Assembly: GCA_025354565.1 (NCBI GenBank)
Contig: JANXMQ010000223.1
Span: 1 to 56,311, forward strand
DNA from: Akkermansiaceae bacterium
GTDB taxonomy: Bacteria > Verrucomicrobiota > Verrucomicrobiia > Verrucomicrobiales > Akkermansiaceae
Reading direction: 5' to 3'
Length of the DNA: 56,311 nt
The position numbers were made by a program, and so were the translations under genes. This document shows positions 17,141 through 52,718 of the stretch, in pieces. Position 1 is the stretch's first letter. Every line of letters begins with the position of its first letter. The notes below the pieces were generated by a model. That model was not told the origin of the DNA, ran no database searches, and saw only the letters and a list, made by a program, of their open reading frames with translations.

Positions 17141-17710
17141 ATGTCAGAAACCAGCACATTCCGCGACCAGTGGTACGTTGTCCAAGTCCTTTCCGGGCAG
17201 GAGGGTAAGGTCCGTGACCGTATCGCTCGCACGGCCGAGGCGGAAGGCATGACCGAATACATCCGCGAGGTGCTCGTACCGACTGAAATGGTCTCCGAGA
17301 TCCGCCGTGGCAAGAAGACGGAAACGAAGAAGAAATTTTTCCCCGGCTACATCATCGTCAACATGAACCTCGCCACCGAGGACAATCAACTCGTCGAGAA
17401 GACCTGGTTTTTCATCAAGGAAATGGAAGGCGTGATCGGCTTCGCAGGGACGAAAGACCGCCCCGCGCCAATGCGGCCACGCGAAGTGGAGGCGATGCTC
17501 TCGCAGATCAAGGAACGCCAAGAAAGCGTGCGTCCCGCCATCAGTTTCGAAGTCGGAGACACCGTAAAGGTGGCCGATGGTCCCTTCCAGAGTCAGAACG
17601 GCGTGGTTGAAGAAATCGACCCGGAACGCGGCAAACTCCGCGTCTCGGTCACGATCTTCGGACGCAGCACGCCGGTCGAACTCGAGTATTGGCAGGTCGA
17701 AAGAGCATAA
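17141..17710 (+). CDS. nusG: transcription termination/antitermination factor NusG
   Basis: The 189-residue protein has the NGN domain (QWYVVQVLSGQEGKV...KKKFFPGYIIVNM) and a C-terminal KOW domain (EVGDTVKVADGPFQSQNGVVEEID, VSVTIFGRSTPVELEY). NusG binds the clamp of RNA polymerase and couples transcription to Rho or the ribosome. The length is typical and there are no insertions. The ATG at 17141 gives MSETSTFRDQWYVVQ; the frame continues to 17000, but that part is antiparallel to secE coding and is rejected. Confidence 0.97.
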   Translation: MSETSTFRDQWYVVQVLSGQEGKVRDRIARTAEAEGMTEYIREVLVPTEMVSEIRRGKKTETKKKFFPGYIIVNMNLATEDNQLVEKTWFFIKEMEGVIGFAGTKDRPAPMRPREVEAMLSQIKERQESVRPAISFEVGDTVKVADGPFQSQNGVVEEIDPERGKLRVSVTIFGRSTPVELEYWQVERA

Positions 17711-45374: not shown

Positions 45375-45446
45375 GCGCTCATTTTTCGTCGTTTAAGACA
45401 CGGCTATCAAGCCAGGGAAAAATGGGAGCTTACGCGCCCGCTCTTT

Positions 45447-45880
45447 TCACCCGCCCCGGCCTCTCGCCGCTGCGGCAACGGGCCATGCGGCGGCGGTTGG
45501 ATTCTGATAGTCCGGGCGCAGCCAGCGGATGAGGCCGCGCTTTTCCTCGGCGGCGCGCTCGTGGTTGAGGGCGACGAGGCGGGTGAGGAGTGCTTCACAA
45601 GGAGTGTGGGCGTCTCGCCCACATGGATTCTCTTCACTTGTGGGCGAGACACCCACACTCCTTGATCGATCCCCCCAACCATACGCTTCTAACACGGCAT
45701 CATCCAGCTCGTCGTGGATCTGGCGCAGCACGGTGACGAGGCCTTGGTCGTGGATTTGCTTTTCCTTGGCGGTGAGCGGCTCGCCGCTGCGGAGTTTTTC
45801 TAACACGTTGTAAATCCCGGTGAGCGTGAGGCCGGGATGCTGCTCCTGCTGACGCTTGCGGACCGTGACCGCCAAATGAA
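45447..45880 (-). pseudogene. C-terminal remnant of an MmeI-like type IIG restriction-methylation enzyme
   Basis: The fragment encodes a known MmeI-like C-terminus: [50 protein letters not shown]-like sequence, and [20 protein letters not shown] before [10 protein letters not shown]. The N-terminal half of the same gene lies at 47677-48715, both on the minus strand. Between them is a foreign cassette on the other strand, so about 400 residues with the methyltransferase domain are missing. A palindrome of the repeat type at 45598-45664 lies in frame inside this fragment. Alone it has no catalytic motif. The exact left junction (near 45880) is estimated from where the family likeness stops. Confidence 0.8.
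45598..45664. repeat. 67-base palindrome inside the type IIG remnant
   Basis: Arms of 26 bases (45598-45623 and 45639-45664) are inverted complements with one mismatch, around a 15-base loop. The arm begins CAAGGAGTGTGGG. It resembles REP-like palindromes of verrucomicrobia and keeps the reading frame open. Confidence 0.8.
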
Positions 45881-45947
45881 GTGACGGAGTTTTTGATGCG
45901 GAGTCTCGCCCTGTCAAGCCCGGCGCTTGACGCCCGTTGTTGTTTCT

Positions 45948-45977
45948 TTGACAATCTTAGATGAAGGGGCTTTATAA
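45948..45977 (+). promoter_or_regulatory. promoter of the restriction-modification cassette
   Basis: TTGACA (45948-45953) and TTATAA (45972-45977) are separated by 18 bases, about 30 bases before the methyltransferase ATG. It lies inside the foreign cassette and would let the methylase be expressed on arrival. Confidence 0.6.
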
Positions 45978-46006
45978 GATCGTTCCTTAAACCAATTCCA
46001 CGCCAA

Positions 46007-46909
46007 ATGATCGTCCCACAACCCTTCCAATATCAGGGTAGTAAACGTGCGCTTGCGCCGTTGATTTTGAACTATTTGCCGATGAAGTATCGCAGACTGG
46101 TTGACCCGTTTGCGGGATCGGCGGCGATGACCTTGGCCTGTGCCGCACGGATGCGGGCTGAGCGCTATTGGCTTAACGACCTGAACAAGCCGTTGGCGGA
46201 ATTGCTAAACCTCATGATCAACCGTCCGGAAGAGTTGGCAGACGCATATGCTGAACTTTGGAAGGGCGAAGCTGAGGATGCTTTGGAACATTTTTACGTA
46301 GTGCGGGAAAAGTTCAACAGGACTCAGGAGCCGAGACTCTTTTTGTATCTGCTAGTGCGGTGCATCAAAGGAGCGGTCCGCTACAATAGCGATGGCATGT
46401 TCAACCAAAGCCCCGACAAACGACGATTGGGCACACGACCTGAGACCATGCGGCGGAATATCATGGCGGTCTCCATGTTGTTGCGGGGTAGAACGCTTGT
46501 GACTTCGCATGATTTCCGCGATGTACTAGCGGCCGCGGAGACCGAGGATGTGATTTACATGGACCCTCCGTATCAAGGGACGTCGGGCGAGAGGGATACC
46601 CGTTATCTTGCGGGATTGTCGGTCGATGATTTTGTGGTGACTCTGGATGGACTGAATGCAAGGGGACTACGCTATGCGATCAGCTACGACGGAAGGACGG
46701 GAGACAAATCATACGGTGAGCCACTTCCTTCCTATTTAAGATTAACACATGTCGAATTAGAAGCCGGACGGTCAACCCAATCGACTCTCCTTGGCCGCGA
46801 AGAACACACCGTCGAGTCCCTTTATATTTCGCCAGCACTCGCTTCGGAAATCGGGGTAGTGCCACAAAAGGCGAGTCGCAGACTGGTGAAACATCCCGAA
46901 CTTTTTTGA
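46007..46909 (+). CDS. D12-class N6-adenine DNA methyltransferase
   Basis: The 300-residue protein has the SAM-binding motif of the D12 (Dam-like) class, DPFAGSAA (33-40) with the YQGSK start (9-13), a middle segment CIKGAVRYNSDGMFNQ (119-134), and the catalytic DPPY at 186-189. This class methylates the N6 position of adenine in double-stranded DNA. It is followed 13 bases later by an HNH endonuclease gene and is transcribed from a promoter within the cassette. The recognition sequence is not readable. The lower GC content of this region and its position inside a broken resident gene indicate horizontal arrival. Confidence 0.92.
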   Translation: MIVPQPFQYQGSKRALAPLILNYLPMKYRRLVDPFAGSAAMTLACAARMRAERYWLNDLNKPLAELLNLMINRPEELADAYAELWKGEAEDALEHFYVVREKFNRTQEPRLFLYLLVRCIKGAVRYNSDGMFNQSPDKRRLGTRPETMRRNIMAVSMLLRGRTLVTSHDFRDVLAAAETEDVIYMDPPYQGTSGERDTRYLAGLSVDDFVVTLDGLNARGLRYAISYDGRTGDKSYGEPLPSYLRLTHVELEAGRSTQSTLLGREEHTVESLYISPALASEIGVVPQKASRRLVKHPELF

Positions 46910-46922
46910 AGCCAACACCGGA

Positions 46923-47651
46923 ATGTCGAAAAAACAATACTCAAAGGAGTTTCTGGCCCTTTGCCATTCGGTGACCGCCAAGCGTCCCAAAACCGTAATC
47001 ACCCACATTCTAGAATACGGGCAAATTACGACGGAGGAACTGAAAAGCCTCTACGGCTACAACCATCCGCCAAGAGCCGCTTGTGATGTCAAAGAGCATG
47101 GAATCCCAATCGAACGCGTAACTGTGACTGGTAGCGACGGAAGAAAGATTGCGGCCTATCGTTTTGGAATCCCCACAAATCTGAAGGTGCGTCGGTTCCA
47201 TGGACGCACCGGCTTGTCCAAGCAGATCAAGGAATCGCTCATCGTAAAGTATGGCTGCCGATGTTTCATCTATTTGGAAGAGATGCCCGAAGCAAAATTG
47301 CAAATCGACCACCGCGTACCGTTTGAAGTTGCAGGTGAATCGGAGACGATGTCACCGGACGAGTTCATGTTACTGTGTGGCTCAGCCAACCGGGCGAAAA
47401 GTTGGTCGTGTGAACATTGCGAAAACTGGACCAAGCTCAAGAAGCGGGAAGTCTGCTTGAGTTGCTATTGGGCGTATCCAGAAAATCACTCACACGTCGC
47501 CATGCAGCAGTTGAGACGGGTTGACCTACTCTGGCAGGGTGAAGAAACGAAGGAATATGAACGACTGAAAGCGGACGCTGCTGAAGCCGGGCTGGCGATT
47601 CCTGATTTCGTAAAAGACGTGCTGCGTAAGGCGCTTGAAGGTGGGAGTTGA
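46923..47651 (+). CDS. HNH restriction endonuclease
   Basis: The 242-residue protein has an N-terminal winged-helix-like segment (ITTEELKSLYGYNHPPRAA, about 35-55) that may read DNA. The HNH nuclease core (about 105-185) has the catalytic IDHRVPF at 128-134, NRAKSW at 156-161 and paired cysteines (CRC, CEHC, CLSCYW) for a structural zinc. HNH enzymes of this form act as type II restriction endonucleases or nickases. The adjacent methylase gene makes restriction the best reading. The two genes are in tandem with a 13-base gap, so they are cotranscribed with the methylase first. The specificity is unknown. Confidence 0.87.
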   Translation: MSKKQYSKEFLALCHSVTAKRPKTVITHILEYGQITTEELKSLYGYNHPPRAACDVKEHGIPIERVTVTGSDGRKIAAYRFGIPTNLKVRRFHGRTGLSKQIKESLIVKYGCRCFIYLEEMPEAKLQIDHRVPFEVAGESETMSPDEFMLLCGSANRAKSWSCEHCENWTKLKKREVCLSCYWAYPENHSHVAMQQLRRVDLLWQGEETKEYERLKADAAEAGLAIPDFVKDVLRKALEGGS

Positions 47652-47676
47652 ATTGTAGTTTTCCTAAACTCCGCTC

Positions 47677-48715
47677 TAACGAGTGCGCGGGTGAGGAGGG
47701 TGCCGAAGATGGATGGCTCGACGGTGGACCAATCGGTGCCGGCGGCATCCGTTAGCATGGCGAGCTGGGCGGCGGAGAGCGGGAGGGCGGTGGTGTTTTC
47801 AAACAGCCCGCCATTGAAACAGGCGATTTCCTTGAAAAGCAGGGCGCTGTAGGCGGTGCCGGTGGCCATTTCCTTCCACAGGCCGGAAACGAGCACGGGG
47901 AAGCCGTGGGGAGAGGCTTGGACTTTTTCCAACAGGTTCCTGAATCCGTCCTCGGGCAGCAGGCTGATGTCTTCGGCGAACATGGTGAAGAGGCAGCGCT
48001 GGAGGAATCCGGCGATGACTTGCGCGTCGTGGCCATCGGCTTGGAGGGAGGTGGCGAGCTTGGCTAGGCGGTCGGCGATGTCGCGGGTGACTTCGGCGGC
48101 TTTCTTGGAAGGGTCTAACGAGTAGGGATCGGTCCAGATGGCGCGGAGGGTGGCGCGGTGTTTTTCCTGGCGGAGATCGGTGAGGAGGATGCGGTGGTTT
48201 TTCGGGTCCGGGAAGCGCTCGTAATGGCCGCCGGTGCCAGAGAACTCGGCGTAGAGGTCGATGCTGTGGCCCACGTCGCAAACGAGGAGAAACGGCGGGC
48301 GACCCTCGGCGACGGGGAGCGAGGTGATGTAGCCGCGGCCTTGGTGGAAGGCGCGTTCGAGGGCTTTGTCGAAGGCGGCGGTGCCGCGCTTGCCGTGGCC
48401 GGATTTGGTGGGAAGAGAGGGCGGCGACGGGTTGTCACCGCCACTTTCGCTGACGCCTTGCTTGGTTTCGCAGACGAAGTGGCGGGCCTTGTAGAGGTCG
48501 ATGTAGTTGGTGACGGAGGTGCCGTCGGGGTTCACGCGGGTGATGGCGCGGTCGAAGACGTAGAGGTTTTTCGCGGGATCGGGCGAGGTGGGATCGGGGC
48601 GGGGAACTTCGAGGATGTCGCAGAGTTCGGAGAGGAACATCTGGTAGTTGGCACGCTCGGCGGCACCGGAGTTTTCCCAACGGGTGATGAAGGATTCGAT
48701 GGCATCCGGCGGCAT
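47677..48715 (-). pseudogene. N-terminal remnant of an MmeI-like type IIG enzyme (nuclease domain)
   Basis: From ATG 48715 (MPPDAIESFITRW) about 346 residues match the MmeI-like N-terminus: the PD-(D/E)XK nuclease with Asp73, Glu83 and Lys85 (YIDLYK...ETKQ, the D-X9-E-X-K spacing known for MmeI), then a helical linker region (LQRCLFTMFAEDISLLP, NGGLFE, LAMLTDAAGTDWSTVEP). The family likeness ends at SIFGTLLTRAL, where native enzymes continue into RHKLGAHYTPR. The frame then reads about 63 foreign codons to a stop at 47486. The methyltransferase core is missing, so DNA recognition is lost and the nuclease is probably inactive. Confidence 0.82.
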
Positions 48716-48810
48716 GGGCCGGAGTCTATCAGTGAGAGGTGGGGTGTGAAGCTGGATTTTCCGAGAATGATCCACACGTTGACGGGGCTTGGTGACGAGG
48801 ACGTCGAAAG

Positions 48811-48832
48811 CCACACGCATGGGCGCGTGTGG
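48811..48832. repeat. 22-base palindrome upstream of the type IIG remnant
   Basis: CCACACGC (48811-48818) and GCGTGTGG (48825-48832) form a hairpin around ATGGGC. The theme (CACGC...GCGTG) resembles the arms of the repeat at 8.5 kb. It lies just upstream of the probable start codon at 48715. Confidence 0.5.
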
Positions 48833-48940
48833 TCCACTTGGCGCGATCGTCGTGTCGATTTTGACTGAAATCACGAAACACGAGACCGGGCTTTCCTTTC
48901 CGAAAAGTGGGCCTATGTTCCCCGCCCGGAAACGACCCTC

Positions 48941-50269
48941 TTGAACCCACCACCCACCAGGCGCATCTCGGGACTCACCGCGACTTCAATCGTGGTTGCT
49001 AACATTGTCGGCACCGGTATCTTCACCAGTCTTGGATTCCAAGTCGGCGTTCTGCCCAGCGGTTTTGCAATCCTGATGCTGTGGCTGGTCGGTGGGATTT
49101 GCGCGATGTGCGGGGCGTTCTGTTATGCGGAACTGGCCGCCGCGATGCCACGCTCCGGTGGCGAGTATCATTTTCTCGGCAGGATCTATCATCCGGCGCT
49201 GGGTTTCATGGCGGGATGGATTTCCGCGACTGCGGGATTCGCGGCTCCGGTGGCTCTAGCAGCAATGGCCTTCGGCGAATACCTTAAAGGAGTCTTCCCG
49301 CAGGTGAGTCCGGTGGTCGCCTCGCTAGCGGTGGTATGCATCGTGACGCCACTGCTGTTAGGTGATGCGAAGTTCGGCAGTCGTTTTCAAGATGCCTCCA
49401 CACTGCTGAAGGTGGCGCTGATCCTTGGCGTGATCGTGGCGGGTTGCCTCGGCGGCAATTCCCAATCGGTGTCCTTCATGCCGCATCTTGGCGACGGTAA
49501 ACTCATTGCCAGCGCGCCCTTCGCGGTGAGTCTCATTTATGTCATGTTCGCCTACTCGGGTTGGAACGCCTCGACTTACATCGCGGGCGAGGTCCGCAAT
49601 CCATCGCGTATGATTCCGCTGTCAGTAGGCGTCGGAACGCTGGTGGTGGTGGTGCTGTATCTCGCGGTCAATGCGGTTTTCCTTCGGAGTACTCCGATGG
49701 CGGAAATGGACGGCAAGGTTCAAGTCGCGCTCACGGCAGGGCCTCACCTTTTCGGCGAAGCAGGGACGCGGATCATGTCCGGCTTGATCTGCCTTGGGCT
49801 CGTCTCGACGATCAGCGCGATGATGTGGATCGGGCCGCGGGTCACGGTGGCCATGGGCGAGGATCTGCATGGCTTGCGCTGGTTCGCAGGGAAAAACCCC
49901 GGCGGCACTCCGGTGAGGGCGACGCTGGTGCAGTTCGGACTCGTTTGTGTTTTCCTGCTAAGTGCCCGTTTTGACCAAGTGCTGACTTGTGCGCAGTTCG
50001 TGCTCCAGCTTTGTTCTTTTCTAACTGTCATGGGGGTGTTCGTGCTGCGCATGAAACAACCGGAATTGGAGCGGCCTTATCGGACATGGGGCTACCCCAT
50101 CACACCGCTGATCTTCCTTGCGGTGACCGTGTGGATGCTCTGGCACCTTGTCAGCTCGAAGCCCATGGAGTCCCTCATCGGCCTGGGGACCGCCGCATCC
50201 GGGCTTCTGCTTTACTTGATTTCATCAAACAAACCGACATCCTCCGCCACCCATCATGAAACCCGTTGA
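48941..50269 (+). CDS. APC-superfamily amino acid permease
   Basis: The 442-residue protein has about twelve membrane helices and the APC signature near the first helix (ATSIVVANIVGTGIFTSLG), with the conserved GxG substrate-binding unwinding. AELAAAMPRSGGEYHFLG follows in the third helix. This is a cytoplasmic-membrane transporter for amino acids or amines; the substrate is not readable. The start is TTG at 48941 (MNPPPTRRISG); no upstream ATG fits. Its end overlaps the start of the next gene by 14 bases, implying a coupled secreted partner. Confidence 0.85.
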   Translation: MNPPPTRRISGLTATSIVVANIVGTGIFTSLGFQVGVLPSGFAILMLWLVGGICAMCGAFCYAELAAAMPRSGGEYHFLGRIYHPALGFMAGWISATAGFAAPVALAAMAFGEYLKGVFPQVSPVVASLAVVCIVTPLLLGDAKFGSRFQDASTLLKVALILGVIVAGCLGGNSQSVSFMPHLGDGKLIASAPFAVSLIYVMFAYSGWNASTYIAGEVRNPSRMIPLSVGVGTLVVVVLYLAVNAVFLRSTPMAEMDGKVQVALTAGPHLFGEAGTRIMSGLICLGLVSTISAMMWIGPRVTVAMGEDLHGLRWFAGKNPGGTPVRATLVQFGLVCVFLLSARFDQVLTCAQFVLQLCSFLTVMGVFVLRMKQPELERPYRTWGYPITPLIFLAVTVWMLWHLVSSKPMESLIGLGTAASGLLLYLISSNKPTSSATHHETR

Positions 50270-51470
50270 AATTTCCGCCGCCGCCATCGTCTGCTCATGC
50301 CTGATGATGGCGGAGAACGCGCCCGCGCAGACCCCGGAAGCAACACCTGCTTCTAACACACTAAACGATACCGCAAGATTCCTCGCAGGTATGGCTCCGC
50401 TCTCCGATCCGGCCTTGAAGGGTCTCGCCCAGAATGAGGCATGGAAGCATCATGCGAAGTTCTTCGACACCGCATGGGCGGATCTCGACAAGCGGCAGCT
50501 AGCCAAAGTCCGTGACTGGGCCGCGACCAACACTCCCGAAGCTTACTCCAGCAAGAGCACGCTGTTCTATATGTTCAGCGGGCCGGATTTCCTCTACGCC
50601 GATACTTTCTTTCCGCAGGCCACCACTTATGTCCTCTGCGGCATCGAACCGATCGGCCCAATACCGGACTTGTCGAAACTCTCGCAGGGCGCGCTGGACG
50701 GCGAACTGCGCTCCCTTCAATCCTCGCTCAATTCGGTCCTGAGCTTCAGTTTCTTCCGCACCAAGGACATGAAGGACGATTTCAAAAACCACGCCCTGAG
50801 TGGCACGCTGCCGGTGCTATATATTTTCCTTGAGCGTTCCGGCATGACCATCAGCGATGTCAGCCATGTGAGCGTGGATGATAACGGAACACTCGGCCCG
50901 CAGCCCGATCCAACCCACCCCAAGTCCAATGCTCCGGGAGTGCGCATCACATTTACCGCGAATGGATCCGATGCGCCACGGACGCTGTACTATTTCAGCA
51001 CGGACATTTCTAACGACGGATTAAAACACAGTGGTTTTCTACAGTATTGCAAAGCACAGAATGGAGGCAATGGCTTCGTGAAATCCGCCTCCTACCTGAT
51101 GCACGAGAACTATTTCTCCTCAGTGCGCAGCTTCCTGCTAGAAAATGCCAACACTTTGATTCAGGATGATTCGGGCATTCCCGTTTCATTTTTCAAACCC
51201 GAGGAATGGACCATGAAATTCTACGGCAGCTATCCCGGACCCATCGAGCTTTTCAAAAACTGCGGCCAACCGAAACTCACCGAATACTATAAGACCACCA
51301 AGCCCGCAGCATTGAATTTCGGTATCGGCTACCGCCACCACGCGAGTGAGTCCACACTGATGGTAATGAGCCGCAAGTCTAACACTCCGGATGCACCGCA
51401 GCAGCCCCCCGTCCCCCCAGCGGCTCCTCTGCGCGCGCTTCCGCTGCAAGCCCTGCCTGTTCCCGAATAA
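50256..51470 (+). CDS. exported protein of unknown function
   Basis: The 404-residue protein has a signal peptide (IVCSCLMMAENAPAQ) and a globular body with regular aromatic-rich stretches (FYMFSGPDFLYADTFFPQAT, YVLCGIEPIGPIPDLSKL). The C-terminus is Pro-rich (QQPPVPPAAPLRALPLQALP). No domain was recognised with certainty. It overlaps the permease gene by 14 bases, so they are translationally coupled and may act in one uptake route. It is followed by a convergent serine hydrolase gene 29 bases away. Confidence 0.6.
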   Translation: MKPVEISAAAIVCSCLMMAENAPAQTPEATPASNTLNDTARFLAGMAPLSDPALKGLAQNEAWKHHAKFFDTAWADLDKRQLAKVRDWAATNTPEAYSSKSTLFYMFSGPDFLYADTFFPQATTYVLCGIEPIGPIPDLSKLSQGALDGELRSLQSSLNSVLSFSFFRTKDMKDDFKNHALSGTLPVLYIFLERSGMTISDVSHVSVDDNGTLGPQPDPTHPKSNAPGVRITFTANGSDAPRTLYYFSTDISNDGLKHSGFLQYCKAQNGGNGFVKSASYLMHENYFSSVRSFLLENANTLIQDDSGIPVSFFKPEEWTMKFYGSYPGPIELFKNCGQPKLTEYYKTTKPAALNFGIGYRHHASESTLMVMSRKSNTPDAPQQPPVPPAAPLRALPLQALPVPE

Positions 51471-51499
51471 ATCCGTTACCATGATCTTCGTGGCGGGAC

Positions 51500-52567
51500 T
51501 CACCTCAGCATGAGGCGCAGGAACTCCGCGTCCGAAAACGGCGCGTCTGCACCCTGCCGCACGATCACGAGATCCATCGAGGGGACCACGAACAATCGCT
51601 GATACCCGGAACCCACCGCAGCCACCAAGTCACGCGGCGCACTCTGGCAAATGCACCGCTTGTGCCAGTCCTGCTGCTGCCACTTTTTCTCCAGCATTTT
51701 TTCGATGTCGCACTCGCTGGCTCCGCTGCCGGCCGTGTGGTTCGTCCAGAAACCCAGTCCGAACATCGGGTTCACGCTGGTGCCTTGGAAACACTGAGGC
51801 ATCCAATCCTGTTTCACGATCGTCCGTTGATCGAACTTCCCGTTGCCGAGGATCAGCAGTCCGAACCTCGACCATTGCCGGGCGGTGAGTTTAAAGCCAC
51901 TCGCCACGAGCGGATTACCCAATGCATCAGCGCGATAGGGCACGGCCCCCAGTCCCAGCGGATCGAGAACCTTGCGTTTCAGATAGCCATACGGTGTCTC
52001 GCCGTGCGTGGCCAGTTTCCGGTGCAATACTTCGCAAAGCACCTGGCCATGGCTCGGCCCGTAAGTGAAGGAGCTACCCTTGCGCGCTACAACCGGCGTG
52101 CGCACTGCCAGCGAATTGCGATCCGTGACCTGATCGGAGTGAAGATGAAATGCGGGATCCAGCCCGTCGCTGAAATTCATGAGATCCCTGACCGTGATTT
52201 TCTCCTTGCTGTCATCGCCGCGCCATTCCCCGATTGTTTTCCAAACAGGATCATCCAAGCGCAGCAAGCCCTCCTGTGCCGCCACTAGCGCGGCCATCGT
52301 GAAAAAAGTCTTCGTGCCACTATAAATTTTCTGCGGCGTGCCTGCATTTCCTCCATTCGGATATTCCTCGATCAGCGGCTTGCCATGCTGAATGACCAAC
52401 AGCGAGCAACCACGGCGTTTCGCGGAATAATCCGCCGCTTCCCGCAGGGCCTGCTTGGAAAGCTCCGCTCGTGCCGGTGAAACCACCCATGCCAGTGCCA
52501 GCAAAATGACGATCCGGAAAGGCACACCGAAACCGTTCGCGTGCTGACCGGAAAAGTTGGATTTCAT
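51500..52567 (-). CDS. serine hydrolase, class C beta-lactamase-like
   Basis: The 355-residue protein has an N-terminal signal (VPFRIVILLALAWVVSPARA) and the SxxK motif Ser83-Gly-Thr-Lys86 (YSGTKTFFTM), which holds the nucleophile. A Tyr169-containing motif (FTYGPSHG) and a HTAGSG segment stand in for YxN and KTG. The family (PF00144) includes beta-lactamases, D-aminopeptidases and esterases, and the missing YxN makes beta-lactamase activity uncertain. It is convergent with the unknown exported protein. The 151-base gap to secA holds no other gene. Confidence 0.85.
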   Translation of the reverse strand: MKSNFSGQHANGFGVPFRIVILLALAWVVSPARAELSKQALREAADYSAKRRGCSLLVIQHGKPLIEEYPNGGNAGTPQKIYSGTKTFFTMAALVAAQEGLLRLDDPVWKTIGEWRGDDSKEKITVRDLMNFSDGLDPAFHLHSDQVTDRNSLAVRTPVVARKGSSFTYGPSHGQVLCEVLHRKLATHGETPYGYLKRKVLDPLGLGAVPYRADALGNPLVASGFKLTARQWSRFGLLILGNGKFDQRTIVKQDWMPQCFQGTSVNPMFGLGFWTNHTAGSGASECDIEKMLEKKWQQQDWHKRCICQSAPRDLVAAVGSGYQRLFVVPSMDLVIVRQGADAPFSDAEFLRLMLR

Positions 52568-52648
52568 GGACGGAGTGGGGGTTCAATGACTGCTGCCGGA
52601 TGCCATCCTAATCCATAAAGATTTGGCAACAAGTGCGAAGTCTAGCGC

Positions 52649-52677
52649 TTGCACCCGCACAAATGCCAGTGTATCGC
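52649..52677 (+). promoter_or_regulatory. possible secA promoter
   Basis: TTGCAC (52649-52654) and TATCGC (52672-52677) are spaced by 17 bases, 41 bases before the secA ATG at 52719. The -10 is a weak match, so this is only suggestive. Confidence 0.3.
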
Positions 52678-52718
52678 GTCCGGCGCGGCGGGTGAACCCG
52701 CCCTCTACCCCATCTCAT

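What the first reader, a model, noticed from the sequence alone, without database searches (positions are those of the whole stretch)
45447..48715. Restriction-modification cassette has replaced the methyltransferase core of an MmeI-like enzyme
Seen: the N-terminal (47677-48715) and C-terminal (45447-about 45880) parts of one minus-strand MmeI-like gene are separated by a plus-strand cassette of about 1.8 kb. The cassette carries a promoter, a D12 adenine methylase and an HNH nuclease. The N fragment ends at FGTLLTRAL, just where family members continue into the methyltransferase domain, and about 400 residues are missing. Known: type IIG enzymes need the methyltransferase/target-recognition part to bind DNA. 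Inferred: a new defence pair has taken over a resident defence locus by replacement rather than simple insertion. Short CGGAGTTT-like sequences occur in inverted orientation near both junctions (about 45887 and 47670), perhaps by chance.
Basis: partly seen in the sequence, partly recalled or inferred. Interest (0 to 1): 0.82.

Follow-up and report, generated by a model that had tools for sequence, protein, structure and literature searches.

The report
Restriction cassette nested in dead restriction gene
A compact two-gene DNA-defence system sits where the working core of an older, now dead, defence gene used to be, and its closest relatives in other bacteria also tend to lie in or against other defence genes, which suggests that one such system can displace another.

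Summary
One MmeI-like type IIG gene (minus strand) survives as an N-terminal piece (47680-48715) and a C-terminal piece (about 45489-45861). Between them lies 1,818 bp on the plus strand with an intact D12 methyltransferase gene and a winged-helix/HNH-type restriction nuclease gene. In 8 relatives the missing interval is 1,940-1,970 bp, about 650 codons, not about 400; in the one annotated with Pfam it holds the methyltransferase and target-recognition domains. The pair is conserved (dN/dS about 0.05) and is the lowest-GC 1.8 kb of the window. The site is a young island: SDR and secA are adjacent or near in 9 of 20 relatives, and none of the 20 stretches holds MmeI or the pair. New: the six closest copies of the pair form one clade; five of the six touch another restriction gene or its remains, against 1 of 26 more distant copies. 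Replacement of one R-M gene by another is known (PMC4615327, passages); repeated nesting of one type II lineage in type IIG/type I genes is a new variant. One-step replacement is not shown.

The parts
47680..48715 (-). N-terminal relic of an MmeI-like type IIG enzyme (nuclease and helical spacer domains)
   Evidence: PDLC03627 4-346; PF20464 and PF20465; homology to relatives begins at 47680
47486..47679 (-). non-homologous tail of the N-piece reading frame, antisense to the end of the nuclease gene
   Evidence: ORF 47486-48874; no homology to MmeI-like genes below 47680
45489..45861 (-). C-terminal relic of the same MmeI-like gene, itself cut at its 3' end
   Evidence: PDLC03627 942-1046 of 1136; matches L063 up to about residue 1157 of 1245; junction at 45861
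45598..45664 (.). palindromic repeat element (26-bp arms, 96% complementary) lying in frame in the C relic
   Evidence: the arm motif occurs 25 times in the own genome at up to 1 mismatch, control 0
45862..46006 (+). 145-bp leader of the inserted segment; single-copy in the own genome
   Evidence: one match only in G000; GC 0.497; promoter scan at chance level
46007..46909 (+). D12 (Dam-like) adenine-N6 DNA methyltransferase, 300 aa, motifs DPFAGSA and DPPY present
   Evidence: PF02086 1.2e-33; PDLC03341 4e-74; dam TIGR00571; motifs
46923..47651 (+). type II restriction nuclease, 242 aa: winged helix plus HNH-like D-H...N..K and two CxxC
   Evidence: PDLC03566 3.9e-55; D129 H130 N156 K159 and C163 C166 C178 C181 invariant in 21 of 21 aligned rows; model pLDDT 78, pTM 0.42
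47652..47679 (+). 28-bp spacer between the nuclease stop codon and the MmeI N junction
45375..52712 (.). variable island between the SDR gene and secA that holds the relic, the pair, a permease and two further genes
   Evidence: SDR and secA lie 105-151 bp apart in 7 of 20 relatives, 693 and 1,847 bp in two more

Best explanation
The locus is the remains of an MmeI-like type IIG enzyme gene whose methyltransferase and target-recognition core has been lost and whose place is taken by a horizontally acquired, probably working type II R-M pair (D12 methyltransferase plus winged-helix/HNH nuclease). SHOWN: the two relic pieces of one gene, the clean junctions, the missing interval, the conservation and foreign composition of the pair, and that the closest lineage of this pair recurs in or against other R-M genes. 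INFERRED: the pair moves without a transposase, by illegitimate or homology-aided recombination, and is tolerated inside type IIG and type I methyltransferase genes because breaking those genes removes restriction and modification together, so the cell is not killed by leftover nuclease. The pair methylates one adenine motif and its nuclease cuts unmethylated copies; the N relic, which keeps the nuclease domain but not target recognition, is probably inert.
For: Both relic pieces hit one type IIG profile at the right ends and one continuous frame in relatives; junctions at 47680 and 45861; 1,940-1,970 bp missing in 8 relatives, 1,818 bp in its place, covering MmeI_Mtase and MmeI_TRD in L063. 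Pair: dN/dS 0.034-0.076 in the pairs of copies where it could be computed, catalytic residues kept, GC 0.515 and lowest of 1,090 windows, 2 of 73 genomes of the genus. Recurrence: L035 has the pair between residues 127 and 909 of another MmeI-like gene, same direction, while in the window it is antisense; L034 has an HsdM fragment (PDLC03022 249-411 of 857) starting at the nuclease stop codon; L134 keeps a 41-bp scar of the L035 gene, 32 of 41 columns identical, 1 of 3,000 resamples as good; L158 has a BbrUII/HgiDII-like nuclease gene ending 5 bp before the D12 start codon. The six closest copies are one clade, support 96/87; 5 of 6 against 1 of 26, Fisher p 1.7e-4, or 4 of 5 against 1 of 26, p 7.7e-4, if L035 and L134 count once.
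Against: 25 of 26 more distant copies show no foreign R-M gene within 600 bp by profile (the one R-M hit was a controller protein at L054, probably its own), so nesting is not a property of the whole family; over all 32 copies 6 is not significant against a 10% baseline (p 0.094). The clade was picked after seeing the pattern. L034 and L158 show one flank only, L046 one flank and no R-M gene there. Core-deleted MmeI alleles without the pair exist (L056, L072), so the deletion may have come first. N relic dN/dS against L062 is 0.30, not raised, so decay is recent or too short to see. No activity or motif is known; the HNH assignment rests on a profile, conserved residues and a weak model (no Foldseek hit at E up to 0.001). 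The genome is a 257-contig draft.
Confidence: 0.65

Rival explanations
1. Two steps: the MmeI-like gene first lost its core by an ordinary internal deletion, and the pair later landed in the scar; nothing about the MmeI gene attracted it.
For: Two relatives have MmeI genes with the core deleted and both ends kept, without the pair: L056 (residues 41-116 joined to 1126-1245 of L063) and L072 (28-154 joined to 1189-1245). The C relic also lost its 3' end and gained a palindromic element, signs of continuing decay.
Against: The breakpoints of those deletions differ from the window's. Nesting of the same pair lineage in another MmeI-like gene, an HsdM gene and beside a BbrUII-like gene is not expected if the pair has no tie to R-M genes.
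Confidence: 0.2
2. Defence-island clustering only: R-M genes gather in variable islands, damage there is tolerated, and some random insertions end up inside neighbours.
For: The window's locus is an island between SDR and secA; in G191 the same SDR gene is followed by genes that look like a C5 methyltransferase and a GHKL ATPase (by eye); L038 lies beside an EcoRV-like system.
Against: Published baseline: 10.0% of R-M systems lie within 10 genes of another (PMC4176335, passages); here 4 of 5 independent placements of the closest clade directly touch one (p 4.6e-4), with two cases cut into the gene on both sides.
Confidence: 0.12
3. Assembly artefact: a draft contig joins pieces of a paralogous MmeI gene to an unrelated R-M contig.
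For: The genome is a draft of 257 contigs; MmeI-like genes break contigs in relatives (G053, G131, G144, G076).
Against: Both relic ends point to one gene with the right order and strand; no other copy of either relic at high identity is in the genome (the next N match is 46% identical); an independent genome shows the same arrangement with another MmeI-like gene.
Confidence: 0.03

Closest known systems
PabI-family R-M replacement events (PMC4615327, passages seen)
   Same: An R-M system replaced a resident type II restriction gene in Campylobacter cuniculorum; an hrgC segment replaced the PabI system in H. pylori and left a 78-bp and an 88-bp end of the old genes; pairs inserted alone, without a transposase.
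   Different: Here the pair is D12 plus HNH-type, the displaced genes are single-chain type IIG and type I hsdM, and one lineage is found at several unrelated R-M genes.
MmeI-like type IIG enzymes (Pfam MmeI_N/hel/Mtase/TRD/C; PADLOC PDLC03627 and PDLC03598)
   Same: The relics belong to these families by profile.
   Different: Methyltransferase and TRD domains are gone in the window and in L035.
Type II R-M pairs with a D12 methyltransferase and an HNH nuclease (NlaIII is such a pair; recalled, not from a call)
   Same: Gene content; PADLOC MTase_II PDLC03341 and REase_II PDLC03566.
   Different: No sequence link to a characterised pair was found; no solved structure matched the nuclease; recognition motif unknown.
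BbrUII/HgiDII-like restriction enzymes (NF050001)
   Same: Gene next to a copy of the pair in G171 (L158).
   Different: 144 bits against a cut-off of 550, so only a relative; no part of the window's locus.

Membership tests
MmeI-like type IIG enzyme | N-terminal nuclease domain and helical spacer | tested here: met
   PF20464 3.4e-21 and PF20465 3.2e-13 in the N piece
MmeI-like type IIG enzyme | methyltransferase domain (MmeI_Mtase) and target recognition domain | tested here: not met
   Absent from both pieces; in L063 they lie at 457-746 and 922-996, inside the missing interval. So it is a relic, not a member.
MmeI-like type IIG enzyme | C-terminal part of the same gene | tested here: met
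   PDLC03627 942-1046 of 1136, though cut at its 3' end
D12-type type II R-M pair | D12 adenine methyltransferase with motif I and DPPY | tested here: met
   PF02086, TIGR00571, motifs at 33 and 186
D12-type type II R-M pair | adjacent nuclease of a restriction family with conserved catalytic residues | tested here: met
   PDLC03566 3.9e-55; D129 H130 N156 K159 invariant in 21 of 21 rows
D12-type type II R-M pair | nuclease has the HNH (beta-beta-alpha-metal) fold | tested here: inconclusive
   No Pfam HNH hit; model pLDDT 78, pTM 0.42; best Cas9-HNH match 61 columns, rmsd 2.9, E 0.21
D12-type type II R-M pair | methylation and cleavage of one shared motif | not testable with these tools
   needs methylome and enzyme assays
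Transposon or other element with its own integration gene | terminal inverted repeats, target duplication, transposase | tested here: not met
   No inverted repeat of 11 or more joins the two edges; the 8-mer is chance; no transposase frame in the 1,818 bp; in L034 the foreign gene starts at the nuclease stop codon

The most novel reading that the evidence does not exclude
A sub-lineage of D12-HNH pairs spreads by displacing other R-M genes: it settles in type IIG and hsdM genes because their loss disarms restriction and modification together, and the leftover gene ends then serve as homology arms that let the pair jump by recombination into intact alleles of the same widespread R-M families, a takeover of one immune gene by another without a transposase.
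Probability: 0.25. Interest if true: 0.75.

Novelty: new variant of a known kind. Interest (0 to 1): 0.5.

Why it matters
Turnover of bacterial immune genes is usually seen as gain and loss of whole systems. Here the act of displacement is readable: the ends of the old gene are still on both sides of the new system, in two unrelated MmeI-like genes, with further cases at hsdM and a BbrUII-like gene. That makes a question testable by sequence alone: do R-M systems invade other R-M genes more often than chance, and only those whose loss is not lethal?

Tried and rejected
Inverted CGGAGTTT at the edges as terminal repeats: rejected, chance level and the 8-mer or its complement also occurs at 17633, 32331, 32782, 45790 and 48667. 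Mobile element with its own integrase: no evidence. Phage or plasmid carriage: 0 of 50,697 phage records, no viral contig, 2 of 72,556 plasmid records at under 60% identity, flanks not examined. An empty MmeI allele at the same site: not found; the site in relatives is SDR next to secA. Finding the left flank of the L034 copy through contig G171:C18: that contig carries a different copy (overlap clearly not identical) and became L158; the HsdM N-terminus stays unseen. The right flank of L046: not in the genome by search. Recent pseudogene signature in the N relic: none by counts. Repeat copies of the 145-bp leader: none in the own genome; weak matches in four other genomes (E 0.03-0.49, 17-27 bp) were not followed.

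Some counted copies are themselves decayed: the nuclease of L134 lacks residues 1-132, G328 and G471 have stop codons in theirs, L140 and L141 are in two pieces. The profile scan of flanks covered 27 copies, up to four frames per flank, 600 bp, E up to 1e-4; it cannot see scars as short as that of L134.

Papers: passages only of PMC4615327 and PMC4176335; all others as search listings. Six searches of an open-licence library listed no paper that by title or abstract start describes a type II pair nested in a type IIG gene; subscription journals are not in it.
Full report
What is there. The minus-strand frame 47486-48715 carries MmeI_N and MmeI_hel and matches PADLOC type IIG profile PDLC03627 at positions 4-346; the minus-strand piece below 45917 matches the same profile at 942-1046 of 1136. 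Against relatives fetched from the same family, homology on the N side begins at 47680-47685 in the 12 displayed and on the C side ends at 45861 in the 8 displayed. Between these points eight relatives have 1,940-1,970 bp; the window has 1,818 bp of unrelated sequence. In L063 the missing interval (about residues 362-1016, coordinates) contains MmeI_Mtase (457-746) and MmeI_TRD (922-996). So about 650 codons are gone, not about 400. The C piece is also cut at its own 3' end (about 88 residues lost).

The pair. The D12 protein is a Dam-family methyltransferase with DPFAGSA and DPPY. The second protein hits a PADLOC restriction nuclease family (PDLC03566) but no Pfam or NCBIfam model. In 21 aligned relatives D129, H130, N156, K159 and four cysteines never vary. 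The predicted model (pLDDT 78, pTM 0.42) looks like a winged helix followed by an HNH-like part; Foldseek gave winged-helix proteins and, weakly, Cas9 HNH regions, none at E up to 0.001. dN/dS between copies is 0.034-0.076 where it could be computed, with synonymous sites near saturation in most pairs. The segment is the lowest in GC of 1,090 windows of its size (0.515 against 0.586). Both genes are therefore most likely functional and acquired.

The site. In 9 of 20 relatives fetched around the SDR orthologue, secA follows at 105-151 bp (7), 693 bp (1) or 1,847 bp (1); in 11 secA was not in the stretch fetched, several of which are short; none of the 20 holds either MmeI piece or the pair. 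The window's MmeI relic, the pair, a permease and two more genes are thus an island between SDR and secA. In one relative (G191) the same SDR gene is followed by genes that by eye resemble a C5 methyltransferase and a GHKL ATPase, so the spot may collect defence genes.

How rare and where else. The nuclease is found in 1 of 145 family genomes, 2 of 73 genus genomes, 7 of 386 order genomes (one of them a weak hit), 9 of 387 phylum genomes and 22 loci of the 84,980-species collection by short peptides. After removal of repeats I compared 32 copies. In a tree of their D12 proteins the window, L158, L034, L046, L035 and L134 form one supported clade (96/87).

Context of that clade. Window: inside an MmeI-like gene, antisense to it. 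L035: the pair lies between residues 127 and 909 of a different MmeI-like gene (75% and 73% identical to L073; PDLC03598 3-89 and 854-909 of 912; Pfam MmeI_N and MmeI_C), in the same direction. L134: upstream homology with L035 runs 41 columns into that MmeI gene (32 identical; 1 of 3,000 first-order resamples scores as well), although the neighbours are others, so this copy carries a scar of an earlier MmeI home. L034: an HsdM fragment (PDLC03022 249-411 of 857, PF02384) starts at the stop codon of the nuclease gene; its left side is beyond the contig. L158, a second copy in the genome of L034 (overlap not identical): a BbrUII/HgiDII-like nuclease gene (144 bits, cut-off 550) ends 5 bp before the D12 start codon, read from the sequence. 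L046: nothing on the left by profile; right side beyond the contig.

Context of the rest. Of the other 26 copies, L038 lies 362 bp behind an EcoRV-like R-M system. The other 25, with L046 and L134, were scanned with PADLOC over 600 bp on each side where present: 212 frames in two sets; the second set listed only 25 of 67 families, so it was scanned again without a kinase and the L054 controller frame (24 families, all listed). No R-M methyltransferase or nuclease family appeared; the only R-M hit was a control protein, which vanished when the L054 frame was left out. Five of 6 against 1 of 26 gives Fisher p 1.7e-4; with L035 and L134 counted once, 4 of 5 against 1 of 26, p 7.7e-4; over all 32 copies 6 is p 0.094 against a 10% baseline, which comes from a published figure for R-M systems within 10 genes of another (PMC4176335, passages). 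The label clusters on the tree (1 of 500 shuffles as low). The clade was chosen after the pattern was seen.

How it most likely came about. Nothing in the segment looks like a transposon: no shared edge repeats, no transposase frame, and in L034 the foreign gene begins at the stop codon of the nuclease. I infer recombination without a dedicated enzyme, as described for other R-M pairs (PMC4615327, passages). My proposal for why such landings survive is that type IIG enzymes and hsdM lose restriction and modification together when broken, so no unprotected nuclease is left. Whether the core was lost in the same event is open: L056 and L072 show that MmeI genes lose their core without any pair, with other breakpoints. 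The N relic shows no raised dN/dS (0.30 against L062, other pairs 0.14-0.56 without the frameshifted L059), so it is young or still intact for another reason.

Verdict. A confirmed, well-delimited case of one R-M system sitting in the gutted remains of another, with parallel cases in its nearest kin. Displacement of R-M genes by others is known; the recurrence for one type II lineage in type IIG and type I genes is, as far as six searches of an open-access library show, not described there.

Noticed in passing
45598-45664: Palindromic repeat element lies in frame in the C relic; its arm motif occurs 25 times (both arms counted) in the own genome, 10 in G171, 3 in G076, 2 in G053, control 0. 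It recalls palindromic elements inserted inside genes of Rickettsia (recalled).
   Followed up: partly
L056:1-651 and L072:260-848: MmeI-like genes in two relatives have lost their whole core but keep both ends, without any inserted pair; in G076 a near full-length allele is on another contig (L062).
   Followed up: partly
L158:541-2346 (minus strand): BbrUII/HgiDII-like nuclease gene directly before a D12 gene; no own methyltransferase was recognised by eye among the upstream frames, so the two may have become partners.
   Followed up: partly
L114, 7.5 kb after the SDR gene: In G191 the same SDR neighbour is followed by genes that resemble a C5 methyltransferase and a GHKL ATPase, a possible defence hot spot (by eye).
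   Followed up: no
L070 (G000:C123): The own genome keeps a separate full-length MmeI-like gene (1,199 codons, 46% identical in the N part).
   Followed up: no
48941-52567: The permease and two further genes beside the relic belong to the same SDR-secA island; close permease relatives (75% or more) are in 8 of 60 other genomes of the genus searched.
   Followed up: no
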